A stretch of 37,815 nucleotides of DNA from Arachnia propionica. Lineage in GTDB: Bacteria > Actinomycetota > Actinomycetes > Propionibacteriales > Propionibacteriaceae. The notes below the pieces were generated by a model, which did not search any database, had not been told where the DNA came from, and was given only the letters and a program-made list of their open reading frames with translations. The translations under genes and the position numbers were made by a program. Of this stretch, positions 9,881 to 24,431 are shown piece after piece. How positions within the stretch are numbered: position 1 is the stretch's first letter; the number at the start of each line of letters is the position of its first letter. Where the stretch lies: the NCBI RefSeq assembly GCF_003932785.1, contig NZ_RQYT01000026.1, positions 1 to 37,815 on the forward strand. Reading direction: 5' to 3'.

Positions 9881-10828
9881 ATGACCGATCCGACCTCCCG
9901 CACGCTCACCCTGCTGGGCCTGCTGGAGAGCCGACGCGTGTGGACGGGGTCGGAGCTGGCGGAGCGGCTCGGCGTCACGACCCGCACGCTGCGGCGGGAC
10001 GTCGAACGACTGCGCGACCTCGGCTACGTCGTCGACGCAGATCCGGGACCCGGGGGCGGCTACGTGCTGGGCCGCGGCCAGGTCGTGCCACCGCTACTGC
10101 TCGACGAGGAGCAGGCCGTGGCCGTCACCCTCGCGCTGACCCGCGCAGCGCACAGCTCAACGGGCCGGGAGGCCGAGGCGGCACTGCGGGCGCTGGCCAC
10201 CGTCGACGCCCTCATGCCCTCGCAGCTGCGGCATCGACTGGCCGCGCTCCAGCAGGCCTGGACAGTGCCCGCCACCGGGCAGGGACCTGACACGACCCTG
10301 CTGCTGACCTGCGCCGACGCCGTGAGTCGGCAGCTGCGGCTGGGCTTCGCCTACCGGGACCGCCACGGCGCGGAATCGACGCGGTCGGTGGAGCCGCACC
10401 GTCTCGTCGCCCGGGCCAGGTCCTGGCTGCTCATCGCCCACGACCTCCACCGCGAGGACTGGCGGACGTTCCGCGTCGACCGGATGAGCGACGTGGCGCT
10501 CAGCACGTGGCGGTTCACCCCGCGGCCCGGGCTGGAGCAGGTCGTGGCCCGCCTCGACGAGCCCGTCCCGCCCTCCGTCTGGCGCCACCGGGTGGTCCTC
10601 CACATCCACGCCTCCCACGAAGTGGTGGCGGAAGAGATCCCGCAGGCGGTGGGCCGCCTACGTCCCCTGCCCGACGGGGGCACCGAGTTCGTCAGCGGGG
10701 CCGACGACCCGGAGGATGCGGCGTGCTGGCTGGCGCGCATGAGGCACGACTTCACGCTGCTCGGCGACGACGCCGTCCGCGAGGCCGTCGAGAAGCTGAG
10801 CCGACGACTCGGCCGGGCCACACGCTGA
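9881..10828 (+). CDS. HTH-WYL transcriptional regulator (YafY family)
   Basis: A 315-aa regulator with an N-terminal winged HTH (about residues 5-62, SELAERLGVTTRTLRRDVERL) followed by the conserved PGPGGGYVLG. A WYL ligand-sensing domain spans about 140-215 (LRLGFAYRDRHGAESTRSVEPHRLV, SWLLIAHDLHREDWRTFRVDRM), followed by a C-terminal WCX region. The family senses nucleotides or other small ligands and often autoregulates. The start at 9881 is 6 nt after a CATGCT -10-like hexamer, so the message may be leaderless. It is divergent from the DUF664 gene and shares the operator at 9843-9861 with it. Confidence 0.88.
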   Translation: MTDPTSRTLTLLGLLESRRVWTGSELAERLGVTTRTLRRDVERLRDLGYVVDADPGPGGGYVLGRGQVVPPLLLDEEQAVAVTLALTRAAHSSTGREAEAALRALATVDALMPSQLRHRLAALQQAWTVPATGQGPDTTLLLTCADAVSRQLRLGFAYRDRHGAESTRSVEPHRLVARARSWLLIAHDLHREDWRTFRVDRMSDVALSTWRFTPRPGLEQVVARLDEPVPPSVWRHRVVLHIHASHEVVAEEIPQAVGRLRPLPDGGTEFVSGADDPEDAACWLARMRHDFTLLGDDAVREAVEKLSRRLGRATR

Positions 10829-10841
10829 TCCGCTCGCCACG

Positions 10842-10847
10842 TAGTGT
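10842..10847 (+). promoter_or_regulatory. -10 element of a leaderless promoter
   Basis: TAGTGT ends 6 nt before the ATG at 10854, placing the transcription start at or next to the first base of the codon. No ribosome site precedes this ATG. Confidence 0.5.
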
Positions 10848-10853
10848 GTCAAC

Positions 10854-11678
10854 ATGACTGCACCGTTGCCCCCGGTTCCCCCGCCCCCACCGTTCCCAGC
10901 CACACCGCCCCGCCGTCGGGGCCTCGTCCTCACCGTCGGGCTGCTCGCCCTGGCCCTCGTCGCGAGCCTCGGCGTCAACGTCGCCCAGTTCCTCGGCAGG
11001 CCGACGGATGGGCAGCGCAGCTTCGCCACCCCCGAGGAGGCCATCACGTTCTACGTGGCCGCCATCGGCAAGGGCGACGTCGCCACCGCGGTCAGTGCCT
11101 ACGCCACCACCTCGATGGCGAAGCGCTACGACCTGAACGAGTCGATGATCAAGCACGGCAGCTGGGTCTTCAACGACTACACCCCCGTCGTCATGGACAC
11201 CGACGTGGGTCGCGCCATCTGGGCGGAGCAGTTCCACCAGATGGCCCGCCACCTGTCGCTGGTCCGCGTGGCAACCCTCACCGTCGACGACCCGATCGTG
11301 CTGGAGCGGCCCGTGAGCGACGAGCCGGAGGTGCTCAAGACGCTCCTCCATCCGGAACGTCTCAACGGCAGCCTCAAGATCAAGGAGATCAAGCTCGTCG
11401 AGGGCTACGGGAAACTACAGGGAAAGACCCTCACCGACCCGCCCCACAATCCTGAGGACGCCGTCGACGCCTACGTCCTGCTGACCTCGGACCACGGCGA
11501 CTACATTCTCAGCCAGGCGCTGATGAAGTACGACGGCAGGTGGCAGCTGGCCACCGGGCGGGGTCATCCCATCTCCTTCGGCAAGGACATCCTGGGCAGC
11601 ACCTTCGTCGCCGCGGAGCCCGGCGCATGGGAGAAACTGCTTCATGACCTCGACGCTAGCGAGGCCAAGTATCGCTGA
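10854..11678 (+). CDS. Proline-rich single-span membrane protein with NTF2/DUF4878-like extracellular domain
   Basis: A 274-aa protein. The N-terminus is a short proline tract and RRR, then one membrane helix (about 23-45, LVLTVGLLALALVASLGVNV), then an extracytoplasmic domain that starts SFATPEEAITFYVAAIGKGD. That opening is typical of NTF2-like DUF4878 domains, which are small cone-shaped folds, often of unknown ligand. The gene at 18845 is a paralog with the same layout (RRRGL..., SFATPQEAVEFYVSAIGRGD). Probably leaderless. The last 37 bp overlap the convergent GyrB-like gene. The function is unknown. Confidence 0.75.
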   Translation: MTAPLPPVPPPPPFPATPPRRRGLVLTVGLLALALVASLGVNVAQFLGRPTDGQRSFATPEEAITFYVAAIGKGDVATAVSAYATTSMAKRYDLNESMIKHGSWVFNDYTPVVMDTDVGRAIWAEQFHQMARHLSLVRVATLTVDDPIVLERPVSDEPEVLKTLLHPERLNGSLKIKEIKLVEGYGKLQGKTLTDPPHNPEDAVDAYVLLTSDHGDYILSQALMKYDGRWQLATGRGHPISFGKDILGSTFVAAEPGAWEKLLHDLDASEAKYR

Positions 11679-12529
11679 CAGGCCTCCGCGACGACCCGGG
11701 CGACGACCTCGTCGTCCAGCCGGTCCTTCGTGGCCCCGGCGTAGCTCGGCTCGTCGACCTCGACGGTGATGACGGCGGCCAGGCCGTCGGGGAGGAGGTC
11801 GCGCTCGTCGAGGAGGGCTGTTCGGAGGGCGTCCTGGTGGCTGCCGCCGCCCCGGGTCCGCTGCCCGCCCACGAAGCTGAGGATGCGGGCGGGCCAGCGG
11901 CGGCCGCGTCGGACCGCGACCTGCACCGCGACCCCCCGTTCCTCGTCGCGGTGGTCGATGACGACGGGGGCCGTCAGTGCTGGCCCCATCCCCTCGGCGA
12001 GCGCCTCGACGCAGTCGAGCAGGCCGCCGGGTTGATGCCAGGTCTCCTCGATGGCAGGGGACCGGAGGGTGAGGGTCGCGCCCGGGTGCAGCCAGGCGAG
12101 TTCCCGGAACCGGTCGGCCAGGGTTTCCGCGTCGACCTCGTCGACGGTGAAGATCTCGGGGTCGAGTTCTCCCGACATCTCGTGCCCCGACGGCCCGTCA
12201 AGGCTGGATGCCTCCTCGCCGGTCGTGTCGAGGCGGACGACCTGCGTCAGGGCCGTCAGCACACCGAGATCACCCCACCCCTTCCCCAAGTCCAGGCCCG
12301 TGAGGTCCTCGTGTCGGGGTCGGGGCCCGTCGTGTCGGAGGGTGAACCAGGGCCCGGGCGCGACCGTCAGTTCGACCCGCCGGGCCCCCAGCCTGAGGGC
12401 GGGCTCGACGAGGTACGAGAGGAGGAGCCGCGCCGCACCCTCCCCGTCGGGCCTCCCCCCGATGTACATGCCGGGTCGCCGCCGGATGGCCTCCCGAATC
12501 TCACTCCACCGCATCACGCCATCACCCAT
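11642..12529 (-). CDS. GyrB-like ATPase/transducer fragment with degenerate nucleotide site
   Basis: A 295-aa protein resembling only the first two domains of GyrB/ParE. The opening IREAIRRRPGMYIGG matches the GyrB N-terminus. The region that should hold the N-box (xxDNSxDE) reads LLSYLVEPALRLG, and the DNGRGIP turn is replaced by RHDGPRP, so Mg-ATP binding is doubtful. The transducer part is better kept: SFVGGQRTRGGGSHQDALRTAL, then DGLAAVITVEVDEPSYAG and the QTK-like loop ATKDRL. There is no TOPRIM domain and no C-terminal domain. The ATG at 12529 overlaps the RloB-like gene by 8 bp, so the two are translationally coupled; an ATG at 12514 is also possible. Probably the third component of the RloAB-like cassette; the role is unknown. 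Confidence 0.72.
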   Translation of the reverse strand: MGDGVMRWSEIREAIRRRPGMYIGGRPDGEGAARLLLSYLVEPALRLGARRVELTVAPGPWFTLRHDGPRPRHEDLTGLDLGKGWGDLGVLTALTQVVRLDTTGEEASSLDGPSGHEMSGELDPEIFTVDEVDAETLADRFRELAWLHPGATLTLRSPAIEETWHQPGGLLDCVEALAEGMGPALTAPVVIDHRDEERGVAVQVAVRRGRRWPARILSFVGGQRTRGGGSHQDALRTALLDERDLLPDGLAAVITVEVDEPSYAGATKDRLDDEVVARVVAEACQRYLASLASRS

Positions 12530-13121
12530 CGCCGCCCCGCATGAGATCCACCAGGACAGGCATCGCGGTGGAGGGATCCGGCCCCACCCTGCCAGCCTTG
12601 AGGTCGGGATCGGCTCGGCGAGCCGTGGCACAGGCTCGATCCACGGCAGGGAACGGGAAAGTGCTTGAGAGGTTCTTCCCAACGGTCAGCCCCATCTTCC
12701 CCATAAGGTCATCGAGTTCGATCGTGCTGAGCACAGAACATCTGTCCTCCACATGCCATCGCAGCCACACCTCGAACTTCAGGTTCGAGACGATCACGAA
12801 GACGTTCTCCTCGGCAGCCAGACGACAGGCCGCAGGCAGTGTCTGGTGCTGGTCGACGTCAACCAAGCACACGCAGATGTCGTACTCCCTGTCCCTCGCA
12901 GCCGCATCATTCCTGACCTCGATGCACTTCTTCACAACCTTGAGGGGGTCCTTCCCCACAGGAACTCGCTTCACCATGGCCGTCACGCCTTGGTGGCGAA
13001 GGTAGTCGTTCAGCCCTTCCACGTACTGGGGTTCTGTACATGTTCCCTCGGTGACGACCAGGATGCGCCGTACCAACGATCTCGAGGGTTTTCGAGGGCG
13101 ACCGCCCGACCGTCTGCTCAC
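12522..13121 (-). CDS. RloB/AbiLii-like protein (defence-associated, TOPRIM-like)
   Basis: A 199-aa protein with the RloB layout: basic N-terminus, RRILVVTEGTCTEPQYVEGL (acidic Glu motif, about 16-35), CVCLVDVDQHQTL (Asp pair near 90-95), and VSNLKFEVWLRWHV (the SNPxFExW-type motif of the family). RloB proteins pair with an AAA ATPase in the Rlo and AbiL abortive-infection systems and are considered nuclease-like effectors (established knowledge for the family; activity here is not shown). The GTG at 13121 overlaps the ATPase stop (GTGA), and the next gene overlaps its end, so all three are coupled. Length is normal for the family. Confidence 0.8.
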   Translation of the reverse strand: MSRRSGGRPRKPSRSLVRRILVVTEGTCTEPQYVEGLNDYLRHQGVTAMVKRVPVGKDPLKVVKKCIEVRNDAAARDREYDICVCLVDVDQHQTLPAACRLAAEENVFVIVSNLKFEVWLRWHVEDRCSVLSTIELDDLMGKMGLTVGKNLSSTFPFPAVDRACATARRADPDLKAGRVGPDPSTAMPVLVDLMRGGDG

Positions 13122-14449
13122 GCCACCCCCTCACGAGAGGCGACGAGGGCTGCCAGTGTGCTCGGGGAGAGCCGGGGTGTCCCGCCGTACCGGCCTGTCA
13201 GGTAGCGCTTCGCCACATTGGCATCAGGATGGCGTGGGAACTCGGCGAGGCACGAGAGTTGGGTCACACCCTCGTAGCTCTTGTCGGTCAGCCACACCTG
13301 TTCCGGTTCCAGCTCAACCTCGCTCAGCGGGGACAGCACATAGGACTCGTGGCTGGTGAAGATGATCTGGGCCTGCTTGGTGTTGACATTCGGGTCCGCG
13401 AACGCCCCGAGCAGCAGGTCCACCAGGTGGGGGTGCAGGCTCGCGTCGATCTCGTCGATGACGAGCAGGCCCCCCTCTCGCAGCCGCTCCAGGGCCGGGA
13501 CTGCCAAGGCGAGCCACGCGAGCGTGCCGTCACTCTCGTCCTCGATGGAGAAGGCAGGAGGCTCCTCGGAGGACCCTCGGTGCCTGAAGACCAGACGGCG
13601 TGAGACCTGATCGAGCTGGTCGTCGTCGAGGGTCGCGATCTCGTCATCACCCGACGGGCTCTCCGACGAACTCTCCTCGTTGAGCACCGAAAGGACTCTG
13701 AGAAGTACCCGACGGATGTCATCAGGCATGTCGGTCTCCCTGACCTCCGCCCTGACCACGCCGATATCGGCGGTCCGGAGCAGGGCCTCGATGTCGGCGA
13801 AGGAGGTCATCCCGGCTGCCAGCATGTCCGCCAGGACACGCAACCGTGCCTCCCGGTGAGCATGCTTGACCGACACCTGGTCCCAGTGCTCCGCGAGATC
13901 GGCAGCGACGGCGTGCAACGGGGAACCCTTCAGCAGCAGCGCCCGACTGAGCACCAACTCGCGATCAGTCACGGCGAAAGGTCTGCCGAGACTTGGATGC
14001 AGTTTCAGGATGCGCTCATCGCGATCGCGGGTCAGCAGAGTGCGCCACCTCGAGTTCGGGACGTCACTGAGCCATTCGCGCCGAATGCCGTCGTGGTCCA
14101 CCTCGAACCCGTAGAGATGACGCCGTCCCTGATGGACAAAATCCAACTCGTAGCTGCTCGTCGAGGTGCGGGCCGTCCCGTCCAGCAGAAACGGAGCACG
14201 CTGCATCGCCTTCCCCGCCTGCCATGTCGTCGCGGAGTGACCGATTGCCGTGAAGGCATACCAGAGGGCGTCCAGCAGGGCGGTCTTTCCCGTGGCATTG
14301 CCGCCGAGGATGGCGGCCATCGGGTAAACCACGGAGGCCCAGTCCTCATCTCGGGGGCGAAGGGTCCGCAACGAGGGTCGTGTCAGATCGAGCGTGACCT
14401 CGTCGCGGATGCTCTTGTGGTTGCGAACCGTGAAGCTCAGCAGCAGCAT
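13118..14449 (-). CDS. AAA ATPase of RloA/AbiLi type (AAA_15/AAA_21)
   Basis: A 443-aa SMC/ABC-like ATPase. It opens with the family signature LLLSFTVRNHKSIRDEVTLDL. The Walker A is GGNATGKT (49-56), the signature region SDGTLAWLALA, the Walker B GGLLVIDEIDASLHPHL, and the switch histidine FTSHES. Such ATPases sense phage infection and license a coupled effector; here that would be the RloB-like protein overlapping by GTGA. The ATG at 14449 sits 6 nt after the -10-like TAGATT (complement of 14456-14461), which suggests a leaderless message; a GAAGGA lies too close to act as a normal ribosome site. First gene of the three-gene cassette. The GC content looks similar to neighbours. Confidence 0.85.
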   Translation of the reverse strand: MLLLSFTVRNHKSIRDEVTLDLTRPSLRTLRPRDEDWASVVYPMAAILGGNATGKTALLDALWYAFTAIGHSATTWQAGKAMQRAPFLLDGTARTSTSSYELDFVHQGRRHLYGFEVDHDGIRREWLSDVPNSRWRTLLTRDRDERILKLHPSLGRPFAVTDRELVLSRALLLKGSPLHAVAADLAEHWDQVSVKHAHREARLRVLADMLAAGMTSFADIEALLRTADIGVVRAEVRETDMPDDIRRVLLRVLSVLNEESSSESPSGDDEIATLDDDQLDQVSRRLVFRHRGSSEEPPAFSIEDESDGTLAWLALAVPALERLREGGLLVIDEIDASLHPHLVDLLLGAFADPNVNTKQAQIIFTSHESYVLSPLSEVELEPEQVWLTDKSYEGVTQLSCLAEFPRHPDANVAKRYLTGRYGGTPRLSPSTLAALVASREGVA

Positions 14450-14466
14450 TCCTTCAATCTACCATG

Positions 14467-14513
14467 CTGAGCAAGCGATTCCTCACGTTTTTCGAGGAAT
14501 CACGATAGCTCAG
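14467..14513. promoter_or_regulatory. Nested inverted repeat upstream of the defence cassette
   Basis: Inner arms GATTCCTC (14477-14484) and GAGGAATC (14494-14501) are separated by 9 bp; outer arms CTGAGC (14467-14472) and GCTCAG (14508-14513) flank them. The structure lies between the ATPase start (14449) and the DtxR-family promoter, and the inner arms overlap the cassette's -35 region. Likely operator, or an RNA hairpin if transcription starts upstream. Confidence 0.55.
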
Positions 14514-18844: not shown

Positions 18845-19741
18845 ATGTCCGCGATGCAGCAGCCGTACCCACAGCCGGGTCGTCCCCCATACACCCCCGC
18901 AGCCGCACAACCCCCGTTCCCTCCCGGGCCGCCGACACCGCCTGGGCCGCGGCGACGCGGGCTGGGCATCGTCGCCGGGGTGCTGACACTGGCGCTGCTC
19001 GCGAGCATCGGCCTCAACGCGTGGCTGTTCCTCGGCAACCGGGGCGGCGGGGAAACCTCCTTCGCGACGCCGCAGGAGGCCGTCGAGTTCTACGTCTCCG
19101 CCATCGGGAGGGGGGACCTGGACAAGGGCGCGAGCGCCTACCCGACGACCACCCTCGCGAGGCATCACGACCCGAAGCGGTACCTCGATGCGAAGCAGGG
19201 GACGAAGACCCCCTACGGGGTCGGTCCCCTTCCGGTCGACGACCCGCGGGTCTGGGAACAACAGATGCGCGCCACGGCAATCTGGTCCACGGGGGAACAC
19301 ATCAAGATCCTTCTCGTCGACAGGGACGAGAAGCTGGACGTGGGGGCGGAGACCCGCCCCGACTCGAAGGACCAGAGCACCGAGGAGATCCTCGCCAAGT
19401 ACGACCGGAGCAGGCTCGACGGCAGCACCACCGTCGAGGAGGTCAAGGTCGTCAGGACCCTCCAGCCTCAGTTCCAGTCCCGCCTCAACGAATGGAGGGC
19501 ACAGACCGGGGCGGAGCAGGTGACCGAGGTCGTCGCGAAGCTCTCCACGAAGCAGGGCCCATTCCTGCTCGCGGTGCAGGTCATCCGTTTCGACGGGCGG
19601 TGGTTCATCAACTCCGGACGATCCCTGCTGGCCCTGAGTCAGTACCAGAAGGCGCTCCAGACCTTCGCACCGATCGAGGAGGGCGAGTTCGAGAAGGCGA
19701 TCAGCGACTGGGAGTCAGGGGGTGTCACCTTCGAGAGCTGA
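18845..19741 (+). CDS. Proline-rich single-span membrane protein, paralog of 10854-11678
   Basis: A 298-aa protein. The N-terminus is rich in Pro, Gln and Tyr (about 1-36), followed by RRRG, one membrane helix (LGIVAGVLTLALLASIGLNAWLF) and an extracytoplasmic domain opening SFATPQEAVEFYVSAIGRGD, as in its paralog. The C-terminal half ends in a charged helix (EEGEFEKAISDWE). NTF2/DUF4878-like by appearance; function unknown. It is divergent from the metal importer operon and nearly abuts the convergent ABC-2 permease (31 bp between stops). An in-frame ATG at 18854 is an alternative start. Confidence 0.75.
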   Translation: MSAMQQPYPQPGRPPYTPAAAQPPFPPGPPTPPGPRRRGLGIVAGVLTLALLASIGLNAWLFLGNRGGGETSFATPQEAVEFYVSAIGRGDLDKGASAYPTTTLARHHDPKRYLDAKQGTKTPYGVGPLPVDDPRVWEQQMRATAIWSTGEHIKILLVDRDEKLDVGAETRPDSKDQSTEEILAKYDRSRLDGSTTVEEVKVVRTLQPQFQSRLNEWRAQTGAEQVTEVVAKLSTKQGPFLLAVQVIRFDGRWFINSGRSLLALSQYQKALQTFAPIEEGEFEKAISDWESGGVTFES

Positions 19742-23265: not shown

Positions 23266-23922
23266 ATGAGCAGCAGTGGGATACGCGTCCTGATCGTCGA
23301 GGACCACGAAAAGGTGAGGGCACAGATCCAACGAATCGTGGAGTCGATGCCCGGCGTCACCGTCGTCGGCACGGCGACCAACGGACTCAACGGCGTCTCC
23401 CTCGCCAACCGCCTGGACCCCGATGTGATCCTCATGGACATCAGCATGCCTGTCATGGACGGCATCAAGGCCACCCAGCAGCTCAGTGACATCGGTGCGC
23501 GGGGCCGCGTCATCGCATTGACATCCTTGGAGGACGACGCCACGTTCCACGCCGCCCTGCGCGCCGGGGTCGTCGGCTTCCTGCTCAAGACAAGCACCCG
23601 AGGTGAGATCCTGCATGCGATTCAGCAGGTTCACCTGGGCGAGGCCATGCTGTCGCCCAAGCTCATCACCCGTGTTCTCTCACGCTATGAACGGGGCAAC
23701 CAGCCCTCAGAGAAGATCCGCGAGCTTCCTGAGCGGGACCTGTCCCTGCTGCGACTCGTGGCTGAGGGCCTGAGCAACGACGAGATCGCCACGGAGTTGG
23801 GTTTCACCCCCGCCACGGTCAAGAGCTACATCTCACGGCTGCTCAGCCGCCTCGACGCACGGGACCGCGCCCAACTGGTCATCATCGCCTACCAGAACGG
23901 CGTGGTCGACCCTCATCCGTAG
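23266..23922 (+). CDS. NarL/FixJ-family response regulator
   Basis: A 218-aa regulator. The receiver domain (1-125) has acidic residues EDH at 12-14, phospho-acceptor Asp58 in ILMDISMP, the Thr/Ser in ALTS and Lys108 in FLLKTS. The LuxR-type HTH (about 150-212) reads LLRLVAEGLSNDEIATELGF then TVKSYISRLLSRL. Partner of the divergent kinase at 21933-23159. The last 10 bp overlap the convergent dciA gene. Confidence 0.9.
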   Translation: MSSSGIRVLIVEDHEKVRAQIQRIVESMPGVTVVGTATNGLNGVSLANRLDPDVILMDISMPVMDGIKATQQLSDIGARGRVIALTSLEDDATFHAALRAGVVGFLLKTSTRGEILHAIQQVHLGEAMLSPKLITRVLSRYERGNQPSEKIRELPERDLSLLRLVAEGLSNDEIATELGFTPATVKSYISRLLSRLDARDRAQLVIIAYQNGVVDPHP

Positions 23923-24431
23923 GTGTCACGGGGGCCCCGGCCCTGGACCGAGCGGCGGCCCTTCTTCCAGCTCGGCGCCTTCGGGCCGAGGAACTCGATC
24001 CGCAGCACCGAACGTTCACCGAGTTCCCTGTTGAGCCGCGCGACGAGCGGGCCCGCGTTGAACTTCATCGCCGACGCCCACGCCGTCGAGTCGCACTGGA
24101 CCGTCAGCACCCCGTCGCGGAACTCCACCGGGTGGGAGTGCTCCGCGTTCGCCTCGCCGACGAGGCCCGCCCAGTCACGCAGCACCGTGGCCAGCGACAG
24201 CTGTCGCTGCCAGCCCCGCCGCTGCGCCACCCCCTCCAGCACCGCACCGAACAGCTGCGGGTCCCGATCGTCGGGGCGGGCACCGGAGCGTTGCTCCCCG
24301 ACGAACCGGCGCCGCTTCGGCACCTTCGGCGGCACCGGCGCCACATCCGGCAGCAGCGGCGCGGTGCGGGCCGTCCGGTGCGCGATCTCGGCGGCCAGGT
24401 CCAGCCCCGTCGGGTCGTGGGGTTCCGTCAC
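23913..24431 (-). CDS. dciA: DciA-like protein (DUF721)
   Basis: A 172-aa protein of the DUF721 family, linked to loading or operation of the replicative helicase DnaB. A disordered N-terminal half with PKVPKRRRF is followed by the conserved core (about 65-150): VLRDWAGLVGEANAEHSHPVEFRDGVLTVQCDSTAWASAM and a C-terminal RIEFLGPK. The position after recF matches the usual actinobacterial order. The GTG at 24431 overlaps the vapC stop (GTGA), so translation is coupled to the toxin gene. gyrB, commonly next, is not here. Confidence 0.85.
   Translation of the reverse strand: MTEPHDPTGLDLAAEIAHRTARTAPLLPDVAPVPPKVPKRRRFVGEQRSGARPDDRDPQLFGAVLEGVAQRRGWQRQLSLATVLRDWAGLVGEANAEHSHPVEFRDGVLTVQCDSTAWASAMKFNAGPLVARLNRELGERSVLRIEFLGPKAPSWKKGRRSVQGRGPRDTYG

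What the first reader, a model, noticed from the sequence alone, without database searches (positions are those of the whole stretch)
11642..14449. Three-gene coupled cassette: RloA-like ATPase, RloB-like protein and a GyrB-like fragment
Three overlapping genes (GTGA at 13118-13121, 8 bp at 12522-12529) form one translational unit. The first two match RloA/RloB or AbiLi/AbiLii, an abortive-infection pair. The third is a GyrB-like ATPase/transducer protein, which I do not know as part of that system. RloB is considered TOPRIM-like, and gyrase-type enzymes combine GHKL, transducer and TOPRIM domains, so the cassette places the parts of a type II topoisomerase next to a sensor ATPase. It could sense or corrupt gyrase, or respond to phage gyrase inhibitors.
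Basis: partly seen in the sequence, partly recalled or inferred. Interest (0 to 1): 0.82.

Follow-up and report, generated by a model that had tools for sequence, protein, structure and literature searches.

The report
RloAB defence pair beside GyrB relic
A known type of two-gene bacterial anti-phage module sits next to a shrunken copy of a DNA gyrase subunit, and comparison with relatives suggests that the two were put side by side in one small lineage and are not a three-gene machine.

Summary
The three minus-strand genes exist as described. RloA (13118-14449) and RloB (12522-13121) share a real GTGA overlap and match AbiLi/AbiLii and Pfam RloB. The third gene (11642-12514 or -12529) is a shortened GyrB ATPase/transducer paralogue. 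The cassette reading fails. Of 51 distinct RloB places examined, 50 have an RloA-like gene in the held DNA and 2 have a GyrB-like gene; those 2 are this locus in two Arachnia species, and in one of them RloB is broken by an internal deletion while RloA and gene 3 stay open. In the third species found with gene 3, it follows dciA directly, with no RloAB there. Gene 3 was found in 3 of 198 family genomes. The 8-bp overlap depends on a start codon that is out of frame in the sister species. Gene 3 has host-like GC3; RloAB does not. The predicted gene 3 fold is GyrB 43K-like, but the catalytic Glu, the Mg-binding Asn and 23 residues of the ATP-lid region are missing, and Pfam HATPase_c does not match. 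Most likely RloAB is an AbiL-type toxin/ATPase defence pair that landed beside an independent, ATP-dead GyrB derivative of the dnaN-recF-dciA-gyrB region.

The parts
13118..14449 (-). RloA / AbiLi-like ABC-type ATPase, 443 aa, probable antitoxin/sensor of the pair
   Evidence: PADLOC AbiLi 4.6e-73, Pfam AAA_21 3e-36; dN/dS 0.13 against G018
12522..13121 (-). RloB / AbiLii-like TOPRIM-type protein, 199 aa, probable toxic nuclease; 4-bp GTGA overlap with RloA
   Evidence: Pfam RloB 3.2e-25, AbiLii 1.2e-16; E25, E30, D88, D90, H92 present; conservation counted; model pLDDT 84.7
11642..12529 (-). Gene 3: GyrB-derived ATPase/transducer paralogue without ATP site and lid, 290-295 aa; the start shared with G018 is ATG 12514
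14479..14499 (-). Inverted repeat TTCCTCGAAAAACGTGAGGAA upstream of RloA, possible operator or promoter element; core TCGAAAAACGT also before RloA in G018 and G010
   Evidence: Seen by eye (the one match is trivial, as the pattern was copied from the window)
9881..10828 (+). HTH_11-WYL regulator; a close homologue lies downstream of gene 3 and convergent with it in all three gene 3 genomes (immediately in G031; after the 10854-11678 gene in G000 and G018)
   Evidence: Pfam WYL 9.6e-21
10854..11678 (+). Membrane-anchored or secreted-looking protein (by eye), convergent with and overlapping the 3' end of gene 3; has a homologue in G018
   Evidence: No Pfam hit at 0.001; 84% identity in G018
23913..24431 (-). 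dciA; in G031 gene 3 follows dciA directly
   Evidence: Pfam DciA 1.1e-23

Best explanation
Two independent units lie side by side. Unit 1 is an RloA-RloB (AbiL-type) pair: RloA, an ABC-type ATPase, holds RloB, a small TOPRIM-type nuclease, inactive, and RloB is freed on phage infection to stop growth (inferred from relatives). Unit 2 is a GyrB paralogue cut down to a lid-less, ATP-dead GHKL-plus-transducer body (loss of the site is shown by alignment; deadness is inferred). It belongs to the dnaN-recF-dciA-gyrB region and WYL neighbourhood of a few Arachnia species. If it works, it works by binding, for example as a modulator or decoy at gyrase, without ATP turnover (inferred, weak). RloAB, which has lower GC3, arrived between dciA and gene 3 before the G000 and G018 lineages split (inferred) and gives gene 3 at most shared transcription (inferred).
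For: Linkage: of 51 distinct RloB places with DNA held (45 genomes; genus, order and phylum samples), 50 have an RloA-like gene and 2 a GyrB-like gene, both this locus. Gene 3 is in 3 of 39 genus genomes and 3 of 198 family genomes at E 1e-15, and in 1 of 396 of a phylum sample at 1e-25, the window itself (only 6 candidates a genome were scored there). G018: RloA and gene 3 open, RloB internally deleted out of frame. G031: dciA, 9 bp, gene 3; no RloAB match in the 20 kb stretch, its RloAB is on another contig. Composition: gene 3 GC3 0.89 like dciA 0.91 and WYL 0.91; RloB 0.74, RloA 0.81. ATP site gone, no HATPase_c in any of three. A C. algidicarnis RloB-type/AAA pair is listed as a validated toxin/antitoxin in PMC10440598.
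Against: In G000 gene 3 starts 7 bp after the RloB stop and probably shares its transcript, so a recent functional link in this one lineage is not excluded. Gene 3 stayed beside RloA in G018 although RloB broke. Only three gene 3 genomes were found, so 'independent' rests on few events. RloB's toxicity, target and trigger were not tested here; its fold match to OLD is tied with lumazine synthases, and E25 and D90 are replaced in 8 of 46 and 9 of 48 relatives. In PMC10440598 the authors only speculate that such pairs are phage defences, and another AAA-neutralised pair gave no protection in their phage screen.
Confidence: 0.82

Rival explanations
1. A genuine three-gene defence module: gene 3 mimics gyrase so that RloA senses phage attack on gyrase and unleashes RloB.
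For: Near-contiguous genes on one strand; gene 3 keeps the GyrB fold; gene 3 retained next to RloA in two species.
Against: 2 of 51 RloB places, both the same locus; gene 3 without RloAB at the site in G031; different base composition; start overlap not conserved.
Confidence: 0.07
2. Gene 3 is a decaying relic of a gyrB duplication at the dciA-gyrB site with no function left.
For: Patchy (3 of 39), dN/dS 0.46-0.55 against 0.13 for RloA and dciA and 0.25-0.31 for the WYL gene, ATP site lost; for the close pair G000/G018 the bootstrap range 0.26-1.21 includes 1.
Against: Open in all three species although dS to G031 is about 0.8; dN/dS G000/G031 0.48, bootstrap 0.35-0.63, below 1; motifs RRRPGMY, RTRGGGSH and GATKDRL kept in all three.
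Confidence: 0.3
3. Gene 3 is a gyrase decoy or modulator: a free GyrB-like body that takes up inhibitors or regulators that bind the GyrB N-terminal region, as MfpA does.
Against: The ATP pocket that aminocoumarins use (recalled) is destroyed; no inhibitor gene was noticed nearby, though none was searched for; no binding data.
Confidence: 0.3

Closest known systems
AbiL (AbiLi/AbiLii) of Lactococcus and RloA/RloB pairs; AAA(D29):RloB(D44) toxin-antitoxin pairs (PMC10440598, passages and part of section 11 read)
   Same: Two-gene order ATPase then RloB, overlapping GTGA junction here, Pfam RloB, PADLOC AbiLi/AbiLii hits
   Different: From an actinobacterium; function not tested here; a GyrB-like gene follows in this lineage only
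PARIS (AriA/AriB)
   Same: Split ABC ATPase plus separate TOPRIM-type effector (PMC12409363 abstract and PMC10568477 passages read); an AriA model matches RloA at 3.7e-35
   Different: RloB matches Pfam RloB and PADLOC AbiLii, and no AriB model at E up to 1; AbiLi scores far higher than AriA for RloA
DNA gyrase B 43-kDa ATPase/transducer fragment
   Different: No Toprim or C-terminal domain, no catalytic Glu or Asn, ATP-lid region shortened by 23 residues against the Arachnia GyrB, no HATPase_c hit
Standalone truncated GyrB paralogues (Myxococcus xanthus 3cwv; Streptomyces L033, L034, L036; Lysobacterales L037)
   Same: GyrB ATPase plus transducer without Toprim (for the four loci; 3cwv by its record name and fold match only)
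   Different: L033, L034, L036 and L037 keep HATPase_c, the Glu and a 45-46 residue lid region; gene 3 is shorter and has lost all three

Membership tests
RloAB / AbiL-type pair | AbiLi/RloA-type ATPase encoded next to RloB | tested here: met
   50 of 51 RloB places have an RloA-like gene in the held locus
RloAB / AbiL-type pair | RloB with TOPRIM/OLD acidic residues and fold | tested here: inconclusive
RloAB / AbiL-type pair | RloB toxic, neutralised by RloA, protects against phage | not testable with these tools
   Toxicity neutralisation is reported for another species' pair in PMC10440598
PARIS | AriB-type effector beside AriA | tested here: not met
   No AriB model among the 2 PADLOC families listed for RloB at E up to 1
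DNA gyrase subunit B | GHKL ATP site: catalytic Glu, Mg Asn, D-N-G-R-G, ATP lid | tested here: not met
   Gap at Glu, Y or Q at Asn, H/Y-D-G with no R-G, lid region 24 residues against 47 in the Arachnia GyrB; no HATPase_c
DNA gyrase subunit B | Toprim and GyrB C-terminal domains | tested here: not met
   Absent in all three gene 3 proteins; present in the full-length GyrB of G031
Standalone truncated GyrB (3cwv type) | GyrB ATPase/transducer body as a separate short protein | tested here: met
Three-gene RloA-RloB-GyrB system | Recurrent linkage in unrelated genomes | tested here: not met
   2 of 51 places, both the same locus

The most novel reading that the evidence does not exclude
Gene 3 is a functional, lid-less GyrB-derived pseudo-ATPase that regulates or protects gyrase in some Arachnia, and in one lineage it has been put under the promoter of an RloAB defence module so that phage defence and gyrase control are co-expressed.
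Probability: 0.12. Interest if true: 0.6.

Novelty: new variant of a known kind. Interest (0 to 1): 0.27.

Why it matters
It separates a known defence pair from a neighbour that looks mechanistically tempting, and it shows a natural case where the probable toxin (RloB) is broken and its ATPase partner kept open. The GyrB derivative without ATP site or lid is a handy candidate for asking whether cells use gyrase fragments as binding proteins.

Tried and rejected
Three-gene system: rejected on the linkage count, on G031 and on composition. Reassembled topoisomerase idea: rejected because gene 3 lacks the ATP site. Gene 3 on plasmids: 22 records, all below 60% identity; two Streptomyces records (annotated DNA gyrase subunit B) cover 94% at 29%; of the 20 rows listed, the annotated features were gyrase or topoisomerase IV B subunits apart from one ATP-binding protein, and five rows had no annotated feature. 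Gene 3 on phages: 16 records, below 60% identity, none covering 80% of the query. RloB against PDB sequences: no hit at E up to 1. Foldseek of the RloB model: lumazine synthases on top, no TOPRIM protein among the 50 rows shown. Promoter/terminator scan: nothing found. RloA/RloB near short GyrB genes L033, L034, L036, L037: none in the held flanks. dciA neighbourhood: 36 of 39 genomes matched, 30 had DNA held; gene 3 lies within 1.5 kb of dciA only in G031. Literature: GyrB paralogue terms gave 8 papers, of which passages of two were read and neither describes a short GyrB like this; gyrase+phage defense+GHKL+TOPRIM and pseudo-ATPase searches gave 0 papers; 3cwv/short GyrB terms gave 17, 10 listed, none with 3cwv among those listed; RloB+gyrase gave only PMC10440598, whose one 'gyrase' passage was not read. 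Other listings used.

Rows dropped: of the RloB matches, duplicates of one place were merged, and 5 places had no locus held and were not examined (G185:C73:92311, G178:C80, G188:C169, G184:C10, G043). In 5 of the 51 places the window RloB found no tblastn match, so the downstream length was not computed, although the whole locus was searched; in 3 (L008, L009, L018) less than 1 kb downstream of RloB was held. The 11 RloB rows were picked with a motif (10 of the 32 loci tried passed), so invariance of E25, G26, E30 and Y33 there is by construction; one search is the check on the 51 loci. L035 was not counted as a short GyrB because its frame runs into the contig end. The DtxR row of the GC3 table was out of frame and ignored.
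Full report
WHAT IS THERE. On the minus strand lie RloA (13118-14449, 443 aa), RloB (12522-13121, 199 aa) and gene 3 (11642-12529, 295 aa). RloA matches PADLOC AbiLi at 4.6e-73 and RloB matches Pfam RloB at 3.2e-25 and AbiLii at 1.2e-16. Gene 3 matches Pfam DNA_gyraseB at 1.9e-11 and NCBIfam gyrase B at 4e-23, far below the latter's full-length cut-off. The GTGA junction of RloA and RloB is real. The 8-bp overlap of RloB and gene 3 uses the ATG at 12529; in G018 one base is missing between that ATG and the gene 3 body, so it is out of frame there, and the shared start is ATG 12514 or GTG 12517.

WHERE IT IS. The window lies in the genus Arachnia: the same locus at 94% gene 3 identity is in a record titled Arachnia propionica OH887_COT-365, whose contig length equals that of G018:C76, a genome of the window's genus. 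The window carries dnaN, a RecF-like gene (Pfam SMC_N; named recF by eye), a PIN-domain gene, dciA, a ZnuA-type ABC system and a DtxR-type repressor upstream of RloA, and a WYL regulator and a mycothiol-S-transferase (DinB-type) gene beyond gene 3.

RELATIVES OF GENE 3. It is in 3 of 39 genus genomes and 3 of 198 family genomes, both at E 1e-15; in a phylum sample at 1e-25 only the window itself matched, 1 of 396, with 6 candidates scored per genome. In G018, RloA (81% identical) and gene 3 (94%) are open but RloB is reduced by an internal, out-of-frame deletion; one search lists one TGA in the G018 gene 3 match, which is the RloB-remnant stop just before the shared start. In G031, gene 3 (about 55% identical) follows dciA by 9 bp, next to the same WYL gene, with gyrB (Pfam) and gyrA (by eye) starting some 4 kb further on and no RloAB match in the 20 kb stretch; that genome's RloAB is on another contig. 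Close WYL homologues (73% or more) occur in the same three genomes of 39; one more genome passes the cut-off at 44%.

RELATIVES OF RLOAB. From three searches 51 distinct RloB places in 45 genomes had DNA held. An RloA-like gene is present in the held locus in 50 of 51 and a GyrB-like gene in 2 of 51, namely this locus in G000 and in G018. The window's own genome has a second RloAB on contig C136 without a GyrB neighbour in the 804 bp held downstream. Five further places had no DNA held and were not examined.

COMPOSITION AND SELECTION. GC3 is 0.89 for gene 3, 0.91 for WYL, 0.91 for dciA, but 0.74 for RloB and 0.81 for RloA. dN/dS is 0.48 (bootstrap 0.35-0.63) for gene 3 G000/G031 and 0.55 (0.26-1.21) for G000/G018, against 0.13 for RloA and 0.13 for dciA; WYL gives 0.25 and 0.31, and the small gene 10854-11678 gives 1.14. 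So gene 3 is under weak purifying selection between the more distant pair, and the close pair cannot tell. A tract of 88-100% identity per 250-bp block (7 of 9 blocks at 94% or more) between G000 and G018 runs from about 10.5 to 12.6 kb, with 72-91% in most flanking blocks, and reaches the RloB deletion junction, which suggests recombination there.

HOW IT WORKS. Shown here: gene content, junctions, conservation, lost ATP site, lack of linkage. Inferred: RloA restrains RloB and releases it during infection, by analogy with AbiL and PARIS; the RloB target (tRNA as for AriB, PMC12409363 abstract; or DNA as for OLD, PMC10568477 passages) is open. Inferred with low confidence: gene 3 acts by binding without ATP. 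G018 is a natural case in which the probable toxin is broken while its ATPase partner and gene 3 stay open.

CONCLUSION. RloAB is a new member of a known kind; gene 3 is a new variant of short GyrB paralogues; as far as these samples show, their adjacency is a one-lineage event.

Noticed in passing
window 14479-14499 (-): Inverted repeat TTCCTCGAAAAACGTGAGGAA upstream of RloA; its core TCGAAAAACGT is also upstream of RloA in G018 (L025) and G010 (L007), and related short palindromes seem to precede some other RloA genes by eye: possible autoregulatory operator.
   Followed up: partly
window about 10500-12608 against L025: Tract of raised identity (88-100% per 250-bp block) with G018, flanked mostly by 72-91%, reaching the RloB deletion junction of G018: probable recombination tract.
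   Followed up: partly
L033, L034, L036 (Streptomyces), L037 (Lysobacterales): Short GyrB paralogues (364-406 aa with the starts chosen) with HATPase_c and transducer but no Toprim; the three Streptomyces ones have R or Y at the Mg-binding Asn and Arg at the QTK Lys.
   Followed up: partly
window 10854-11678 (+) and 18845-19741 (+): Two related membrane-anchored-looking genes (by eye); the second is a distant homologue (35% to the G018 copy of the first). The first has no Pfam match and dN/dS 1.14 against G018.
   Followed up: no
Downstream of dciA in Arachnia (L112-L141): gyrB appears within 1.5 kb of dciA in only one of 30 loci (G020, L119); in the loci looked at the interval seems variable and may be an insertion hotspot.
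   Followed up: partly
RloB homologues L015, L021, L022, L170, L172 and L182, L183: RloBs in which E25 is replaced by Asn or Cys while E30 and D88 stay: possibly a sub-group with an altered or different active site.
   Followed up: no
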